Positions 57,084 to 57,705 of a stretch of DNA of 64,000 bases are shown here, piece after piece. The stretch is from assembly GCF_012848855.1 (NCBI RefSeq), contig NZ_CP051630.1, forward strand, positions 2,707,501-2,771,500, read 5' to 3'. Numbering within the stretch: position 1 is the first letter of the stretch; every line of letters begins with the position of its first letter. The notes under the pieces were generated by a model. That model was not told where the DNA came from and searched no databases. It worked only from the letters and a program-made list of their open reading frames with translations. The stretch comes from Pyruvatibacter mobilis (GTDB lineage Bacteria > Pseudomonadota > Alphaproteobacteria > CGMCC-115125). A program made the position numbers and the translations under genes.

Positions 57084-57305
57084 TTAACCTTCTGCTTCTG
57101 GCCTTGGCCCATGGTAGTCGGTAATGCCATGGGCGAGCGCATAACATGCAAGCCTAATGGAACGCGGGACTTTAACGGACTCCCCGTCCCTCTCACCTTT
57201 CTCATAGTACTGAATTATTCTGGGTTTTAGCCCAAGTGCTTTTGCCGCATCTTTTTGCGACATGCCCAATGACTTGCGCCACCGCTTGAAATCTTTGGCT
57301 TCCAT
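57084..57305 (-). CDS. Small XRE-type helix-turn-helix regulator
   Basis: 73 residues, essentially a single HTH domain: FKRWRKSLGMSQKDAAKALG, then LKPRIIQYYEKGERDG and a final basic/Pro tail. ATG at 57305 (MEAKDFKRW) or 57311 are the sensible starts; the upstream in-frame stretch overlaps an operator. It is divergent from a 50-residue ORF across 168 bases that contain two similar inverted repeats, so it is most likely an autoregulated repressor of that ORF. The YYEKGER phrase is typical of XRE antitoxin- or phage-type repressors. Confidence 0.85.
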   Translation of the reverse strand: MEAKDFKRWRKSLGMSQKDAAKALGLKPRIIQYYEKGERDGESVKVPRSIRLACYALAHGITDYHGPRPEAEG

Positions 57306-57345
57306 TGTCATCCAGATTCTGCGGTCGCGACCGCGAACACCCTGT

Positions 57346-57364
57346 TTGCGCACTGTGTGCGCAA
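57346..57364. promoter_or_regulatory. Operator O1, perfect inverted repeat
   Basis: TTGCGCAC-TGT-GTGCGCAA, an exact 8-3-8 dyad upstream of the XRE gene. Same consensus as O2 31 bases away, about three helical turns. Confidence 0.75.
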
Positions 57365-57369
57365 CTCCA

Positions 57370-57398
57370 TTGACAATTGCGCACCCCGTGCGTATATA
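57370..57398 (+). promoter_or_regulatory. Consensus promoter of the 50-residue ORF
   Basis: TTGACA (57370-57375), 17-base spacer, TATATA (57393-57398). Operator O2 fills the spacer and O1 lies just upstream, so a bound repressor would block RNA polymerase. Confidence 0.8.
57377..57395. promoter_or_regulatory. Operator O2 within the promoter spacer
   Basis: TTGCGCAC-CCC-GTGCGTAT: same left half as O1 and five matching bases of the right half, lying between the -35 and -10 elements. Confidence 0.7.
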
Positions 57399-57473
57399 GG
57401 ATGCACATTACGGTTTTATGACATCGCCGATTGGCGGCGAAGCATCAAGACCTGAAAGAATGGAGAGTCGATC

Positions 57474-57626
57474 ATGACCAGGAATATGGTGTTCTGGCTC
57501 TCTTTCGGGCTCGTACCCCGGAGGGAGCAGCGCGAAGACCGCCGTGTGTTTAGCGGTCACACTCTTGAAGACGAACGTTCGTTTTCTCGCCGCATGGCCT
57601 TCTACAAGGCCCACCCCCACCACTAG
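57474..57626 (+). CDS. 50-residue small protein under XRE control
   Basis: Short ORF reading MTRNMVFWLSFGLVPRREQR at its start, then an acidic/basic middle and an end of MAFYKAHPHH. The first 13 residues are hydrophobic/aromatic and the rest strongly charged. Evidence that it is real: GGAGAG 8-9 bases before the ATG, a consensus promoter 75 bases upstream with twin operators, and a strong terminator 43 bases after the stop, giving a complete one-gene transcription unit. No family recognised. The antisense ORF here has no such signals. Confidence 0.6.
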   Translation: MTRNMVFWLSFGLVPRREQREDRRVFSGHTLEDERSFSRRMAFYKAHPHH

Positions 57627-57668
57627 GCGCCTGCGTATTTACGGCGACTAGCTGACGAGTAAGAAATC

Positions 57669-57705
57669 AGGCGGATCAACTTGCAGGTTGATCCGCCTTT
57701 TCTTT
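57669..57705 (+). terminator. Terminator of the small-protein unit, shared with bioD
   Basis: Perfect 12-bp stem AGGCGGATCAAC / GTTGATCCGCCT with a 6-base loop, then TTTTCTTT on the plus strand. On the minus strand it lies beyond the bioD stop and is followed by a weaker T-rich run. Confidence 0.9.

What the first reader, a model, noticed from the sequence alone, without database searches (positions are those of the whole stretch)
57084..57705. Compact XRE repressor / 50-residue protein switch with twin operators
A 73-residue XRE regulator faces a 50-codon ORF. Between them are an exact 19-base dyad (TTGCGCAC-TGT-GTGCGCAA) and a near copy 31 bases away that fills the spacer of a TTGACA-17-TATATA promoter. 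The small ORF has a ribosome site and a perfect terminator. This is the architecture of a repressor-controlled one-gene unit, yet the product matches no family I know, and it is not next to phage or toxin genes. Candidates: a stress-induced regulatory peptide, a membrane-active small protein, or the toxin half of an unusual module.
Basis: partly seen in the sequence, partly recalled or inferred. Interest (0 to 1): 0.72.

Follow-up and report, generated by a model that had tools for sequence, protein, structure and literature searches.

The report
Repressor switch guarding unknown small proteins
A tiny DNA-binding repressor sits back to back with a gene for a 50-residue protein of unknown function, and the same repressor and promoter-embedded binding site guard different unknown small proteins in many alphaproteobacteria.

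Summary
XRE gene, 50-codon ORF, exact 19-bp dyad, second dyad filling a TTGACA-17-TATATA spacer, ribosome site and terminator are all present. The unit is conserved in all four genomes of the genus, with the small ORF under purifying selection (dN/dS 0.05-0.27). It is not a one-off: orthologues of this XRE occur in 30 of 385 sampled alphaproteobacterial genomes. About two thirds have GCGCAC-N3-GTGCGC dyads just upstream. In 24 of 25 loci the dyad lies inside a promoter spacer. Downstream lies a small ORF: homologues of this one in one other sampled family, an unrelated ~80-aa family elsewhere, and a few more. None tested matches Pfam or NCBIfam. One genome has the dyads and small gene away from its XRE, so control appears to act in trans. 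Best reading: a dedicated local repressor of small chromosomal effector genes. It works like an Aca-acr unit but is not one, and nothing points to a toxin or phage module. New clue: a Pho-box-like site pointing at the XRE gene in every locus with this small protein, suggesting phosphate input. Regulation is inferred with good support; the small protein's biochemical role is unknown.

The parts
57084..57305 (-). XRE/HTH_3 repressor, 73 aa
   Evidence: Pfam HTH_3 E 1.3e-8; 83-87% identical orthologues in genus, 30/385 genomes in class
57346..57364 (.). operator 1, exact 19-bp dyad TTGCGCAC-TGT-GTGCGCAA
   Evidence: core conserved in all 4 genus genomes
57379..57393 (.). operator 2, GCGCAC-CCC-GTGCGT, inside the promoter spacer
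57370..57398 (+). rightward sigma70-type promoter TTGACA-17-TATATA of the small ORF
   Evidence: same composite element in 24/25 XRE-linked loci
57407..57424 (-). Pho-box-like element ATGTCAT-AAAA-CCGTAAT, 10 bp from TATACG, directed at the XRE gene
   Evidence: joint best score in the 64-kb window; exact GTTTTATGACA core in all six homologous loci
57462..57467 (+). ribosome site GGAGAG
57474..57626 (+). 50-aa small protein MTRNMVFWLSFG...AHPHH, two predicted helices (3-11, 31-46)
   Evidence: conserved 66-74% in genus; dN/dS 0.05-0.27; distant homologues in G094 and G295; model
57669..57705 (+). intrinsic terminator, 13-bp stem plus T-run
   Evidence: stem-loops with T-runs also found in G001 and G003

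Best explanation
This is a chromosomal repressor-target pair. The 73-aa XRE protein most likely binds as dimers to the two GCGCAC-N3-GTGCGC dyads, on one face of the helix, 31 bp apart. The dyad inside the -35/-10 spacer of the small-gene promoter blocks RNA polymerase there, so an intrinsically good promoter is held off. The dyads also lie across the start and leader of a possible leftward transcript, so the XRE most likely represses itself. In this lineage a Pho-box-like site reads towards the XRE gene 10 bp from a -10-like hexamer, and it also lies just downstream of the expected small-gene start. PhoB may therefore raise the repressor and block the small gene when phosphate is short. The released product is a small basic, aromatic-rich protein that probably works as an adaptor or effector by binding another cell component, not as a toxin. 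Shown here: conservation, selection, operator/promoter geometry, linkage, near-uniqueness of the sites. Inferred: binding, repression, autoregulation, phosphate input (about 0.45 likely), effector role. The confidence given is for the repressor-operator-small gene core.
For: Small ORF, XRE and dyads conserved in 4/4 genus genomes, with neighbours mtgA and bioD kept. Purifying selection on the ORF. XRE orthologues in other families have dyads upstream in 19/30 loci at <=1 mismatch. Dyad inside a 16-18-bp promoter spacer in 24/25 loci, with flank shuffles rarely matching. Twin-dyad genomes and XRE genomes overlap in 10 of 11 (p about 2e-11). In G067 three dyads precede an 80-aa small gene on a contig other than the XRE's, indicating action in trans. 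Only 2 other dyads in the whole genome: a local regulon. Pho-box-like element on the XRE-directed strand in all six loci with this small protein. In G380 a second twin-dyad promoter precedes a small ORF followed directly by a CHAD-domain gene (E 9e-50); CHAD domains bind polyphosphate (own knowledge).
Against: No binding or expression data. Seven of 30 XRE orthologues have no dyad or recognisable small ORF beside them, so the pairing is not obligatory. The leftward -10 (TATACG) is weak. The Pho-box-like site matches only 11 of the 14 consensus bases, and in G295 and G094 its spacing to a -10 is uncertain. Pho boxes of known phosphate genes in this genome were not checked. The fold model of the small protein is low confidence (pLDDT 67).
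Confidence: 0.78

Rival explanations
1. Toxin-antitoxin pair: the XRE is the antitoxin and autorepressor and the 50-aa protein is the toxin.
For: XRE-type HTH with weak profile similarity to MqsA-like antitoxins; small basic product; operators typical of autoregulated TA units.
Against: Divergent rather than operonic; XRE is only HTH plus a short tail with no toxin-binding domain seen; unrelated small families pair with the same XRE; in G067 the dyads and small gene are unlinked from the XRE; no homologue in the plasmid, phage or viral collections searched; syntenic in the genus; no toxin-family or PADLOC match for the small protein.
Confidence: 0.08
2. Anti-repressor loop: the small protein binds the XRE and lifts its own repression, as CinS does for PraR in Rhizobium leguminosarum (PMC4149787, PMC10688885), giving a bistable or pulse switch.
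For: XRE has no sensor domain, so something must relieve it; precedent of a small anti-repressor for an alphaproteobacterial XRE.
Against: The partner is swapped for unrelated families while the XRE stays mostly 64-76% identical; no co-variation test possible with these numbers.
Confidence: 0.15
3. Chromosomal relic or domesticated anti-CRISPR unit: Aca-like repressor plus a small Acr-like protein.
For: Same size HTH, profile match to Aca1 structures (E 2e-5), an inverted repeat inside the core promoter with one or two repeats as in Aca families (PMC9410906), and one regulator linked to several unrelated small families.
Against: Divergent, not downstream in an operon; fixed chromosomal position in the genus; small proteins not found in the phages, plasmids and viral contigs searched; no mobile genes near. 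Presence of CRISPR-Cas in the host was not tested.
Confidence: 0.06
4. The small ORF is not translated; the conserved stretch is a regulatory RNA with a terminator.
For: Short transcript with strong terminator; conserved 5' segment.
Against: Codon-level selection (dN/dS 0.05-0.27), no indels in the frame, conserved RBS and stop; no Rfam match.
Confidence: 0.03

Closest known systems
Aca (anti-CRISPR-associated) HTH repressors and acr-aca operons
   Same: 65-80-aa HTH protein, one or two inverted repeats with one inside the core promoter, control of small orphan ORFs of several unrelated families
   Different: Divergent, chromosomal, vertically conserved, not in mobile elements; acts in trans in one genome; Pho-box-like input; no Acr known among the products
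PraR/CdxA/RogA-type XRE regulators of Alphaproteobacteria
   Same: Alphaproteobacterial XRE regulators with phage relatives; one (PraR) is controlled by a small anti-repressor, CinS
   Different: From their described neighbourhoods and targets (PMC10688885) a different XRE group; direct sequence comparison not run. Here a 73-aa protein with a near-unique local operator, not a broad regulon
Type II TA units with XRE antitoxins (HigA/MqsA type)
   Same: XRE autorepressor, small basic partner
   Different: Divergent, partner swaps, no toxin family, unlinked in one genome
CI/Cro-type phage switches
   Same: HTH repressor, paired operators about three helical turns apart between divergent genes
   Different: Single repressor, no phage genes; the operator lies inside one promoter's spacer

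Membership tests
Aca-acr unit | small HTH regulator with inverted repeat inside the target core promoter | tested here: met
Aca-acr unit | regulator gene downstream in the same operon as the small gene(s) | tested here: not met
   divergent in the window and all four genus genomes
Aca-acr unit | located in phages, plasmids or other mobile elements | tested here: not met
   no small-protein relative in the phage, plasmid or viral-contig collections searched; syntenic with mtgA and bioD
Aca-acr unit | partner inhibits CRISPR-Cas | not testable with these tools
   needs an interference assay
Type II toxin-antitoxin | toxin and antitoxin genes co-transcribed | tested here: not met
   opposite strands
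Type II toxin-antitoxin | partner belongs to a toxin family | tested here: not met
   no Pfam, NCBIfam or PADLOC match
Type II toxin-antitoxin | partner is toxic and neutralised by the XRE | not testable with these tools
   needs expression test
HTH_3 / XRE regulators | HTH_3 domain above curated cut-off | tested here: met
   35.2 bits against 23
PhoB regulon target | two CTGTCAT-like 7-mers separated by an A/T-rich 4-mer upstream of a -10 | tested here: inconclusive
   11 of 14 matches, A/T spacer, 10 bp from TATACG; GTTTTATGACA core in 6/6 loci; PhoB dependence not tested

The most novel reading that the evidence does not exclude
A class-wide alphaproteobacterial regulon in which one minimal XRE repressor controls, through an operator built into the promoter spacer, a rotating set of unrelated small proteins tied to phosphate or polyphosphate physiology (PhoB raising the repressor; small basic proteins and a CHAD protein as outputs).
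Probability: 0.3. Interest if true: 0.75.

Novelty: new variant of a known kind. Interest (0 to 1): 0.58.

Why it matters
It gives a sequence-level rule (TTGACA-N2-GCGCAC-N3-GTGCG-TATA next to, or in trans of, one XRE family) that finds small-protein genes across Alphaproteobacteria that the family libraries do not hold. Repressor, operator and target together are only about 600 bp, so the switch is directly testable, and the conserved Pho-box-like site supplies a specific condition to test.

Tried and rejected
Toxin, anti-CRISPR, phage and plasmid origin: small proteins not found in the plasmid, phage or viral collections searched; viral XRE relatives are only 27-51% identical and rarely have these dyads. 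Rfam search of the stretch: nothing. Homology between the 50-aa family and the other small families (G150, G327, G120, G144 types and the 80-aa family): not supported above shuffled decoys; only G094 and G295 are. Grouping of XRE by partner: tree poorly resolved. Fold search of the small-protein model: not done, confidence too low. Extra dyads in G001/G003 (L069, L070) and G003 (L065): no convincing small gene found.

Full report
Observation. It lies between a transglycosylase gene (mtgA-like) and bioD-bioF-like genes. A MAG of Candidatus Phaeomarinobacter carries the same locus, so the window most likely comes from that genus.

The ORF is real. All four genomes of the genus have it at 66-74% identity next to the XRE, with conserved neighbours where the contig allows. 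There is no indel in the frame, and dN/dS is 0.05-0.27 for the ORF and 0.05-0.08 for the XRE. No Pfam, NCBIfam or PADLOC family matches the product and the only PHROG hit is E 0.62; Rfam finds nothing. Structure prediction gives two helices, residues 3-11 and 31-46, at low confidence. The protein has 10 K/R, 6 D/E, 4 H and 7 aromatic residues.

The unit is one case of a wider pattern. XRE orthologues occur in 30 of 385 class genomes and, in an even phylum sample, in 6 of 398, all of the same class. Upstream of 19 of the 30, dyads of the form GCGCAC-N3-GTGCGC with at most one mismatch occur, often two or three, mostly 26-34 bp apart. In 24 of 25 loci the dyad lies within a 16-18-bp spacer between TTGnnn and a TATANT-like -10, and shuffled flanks rarely reach the observed score (the 25 loci were chosen because they have a dyad and a partner gene, and four are from one genus). 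The twin-dyad pattern occurs in 11 of 385 genomes, none for the reversed control, and 10 of these 11 have the XRE (related genomes count apart, so the p-value is optimistic). In G067 the dyads and an 80-aa small gene are on a contig without the XRE, whose own locus has none: the best evidence that the XRE acts in trans on these sites. In the window's genome only four such sites exist, two of them here, so the regulon is local.

The targets vary. Homologues of the 50-aa protein are found in G094 and G295, a different sampled family, beside their XRE genes (E about 1e-4 in a set with 4600 shuffled decoys, whose best is 0.25). Elsewhere the divergent gene encodes an ~80-aa family (nine members; four not used in the first profile match it at E 2e-7 or better; no similarity to the 50-aa family), a 41-aa family, 24-aa proteins, or others. 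None of those tested matches Pfam or NCBIfam. The representatives tried were not found in the phage, plasmid and viral collections.

A new element. All six loci with homologues of the 50-aa protein contain GTTTTATGACA, read on the other strand as TGTCAT-AAAA-C, the first half of a Pho box. The best 18-bp matches score 13-14 of 16 in five loci, at or above the best of 100 shuffles; G295 shows phased 11-bp repeats (12.5). In the window it is the joint top match and reads towards the XRE gene, with TATACG 10 bp further on, so that the two promoters would share one AT-rich hexamer region. Pho boxes are two 7-nt CTGTCAT repeats with a 4-nt A/T-rich spacer (PMC3131613; PMC4415409). In G380 a second twin-dyad promoter precedes a small ORF followed directly by a CHAD-domain gene. 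Both point to phosphate, but neither is proof.

Mechanism. I infer that XRE dimers occupy both dyads and exclude RNA polymerase from the small-gene promoter, and also repress the XRE's own leftward promoter. The XRE has no sensor domain, so release must come from a change in its amount or from another protein. PhoB could set the amount in this lineage. What the small protein does is not known; that it is an effector or adaptor is inference from its size, basic and aromatic content, and strict conservation of its C-terminal half. Toxin, anti-repressor and anti-CRISPR readings are rated in the rivals.

Comparison. The arrangement works like acr-aca units, where one small HTH protein represses small orphan genes through an inverted repeat inside the core promoter (PMC9410906), and the profile of this XRE family matches Aca1 structures. 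It is not a member: genes are divergent, chromosomal and vertical. Described alphaproteobacterial XRE regulators of the PraR/CdxA group (PMC10688885; PMC4149787) supply the precedent of a small anti-repressor. Literature searches for the operator with XRE regulators found no description of this unit, within an open-licence library only.

Limits. 

Noticed in passing
L116:3916-4582 (same promoter in L117, L120): Phage contigs with twin ACGCAC-N3-GTGCGT dyads in a promoter-like stretch; in L116 it is followed by a 24-aa hydrophobic ORF (MLGKLLTLLILVLEVIERLLNLLN) and then an XRE gene: a phage unit with similar logic.
   Followed up: partly
L196:3184-5700 (G380): Second twin-dyad promoter in G380 with a 134-aa ORF of no known family directly followed by a CHAD-domain gene (Pfam E 9e-50).
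   Followed up: yes
L065:1500-1515 (G003): A dyad inside a TTGCAC-TATATG promoter-like element upstream of a gene resembling uvrC by eye, with no evident small gene.
   Followed up: partly
L201:4558-4911 (G067): Three dyads and an 80-aa small gene on a contig separate from this genome's XRE gene.
   Followed up: yes
L059, L060, L207 (G144, G242): Very small (24-aa) ORFs MLGHFIYWKFVFK.../MYGHLLYWGFVFK... beside the XRE in 1.4-Mb genomes, near a gene resembling formaldehyde-activating enzyme by eye.
   Followed up: partly
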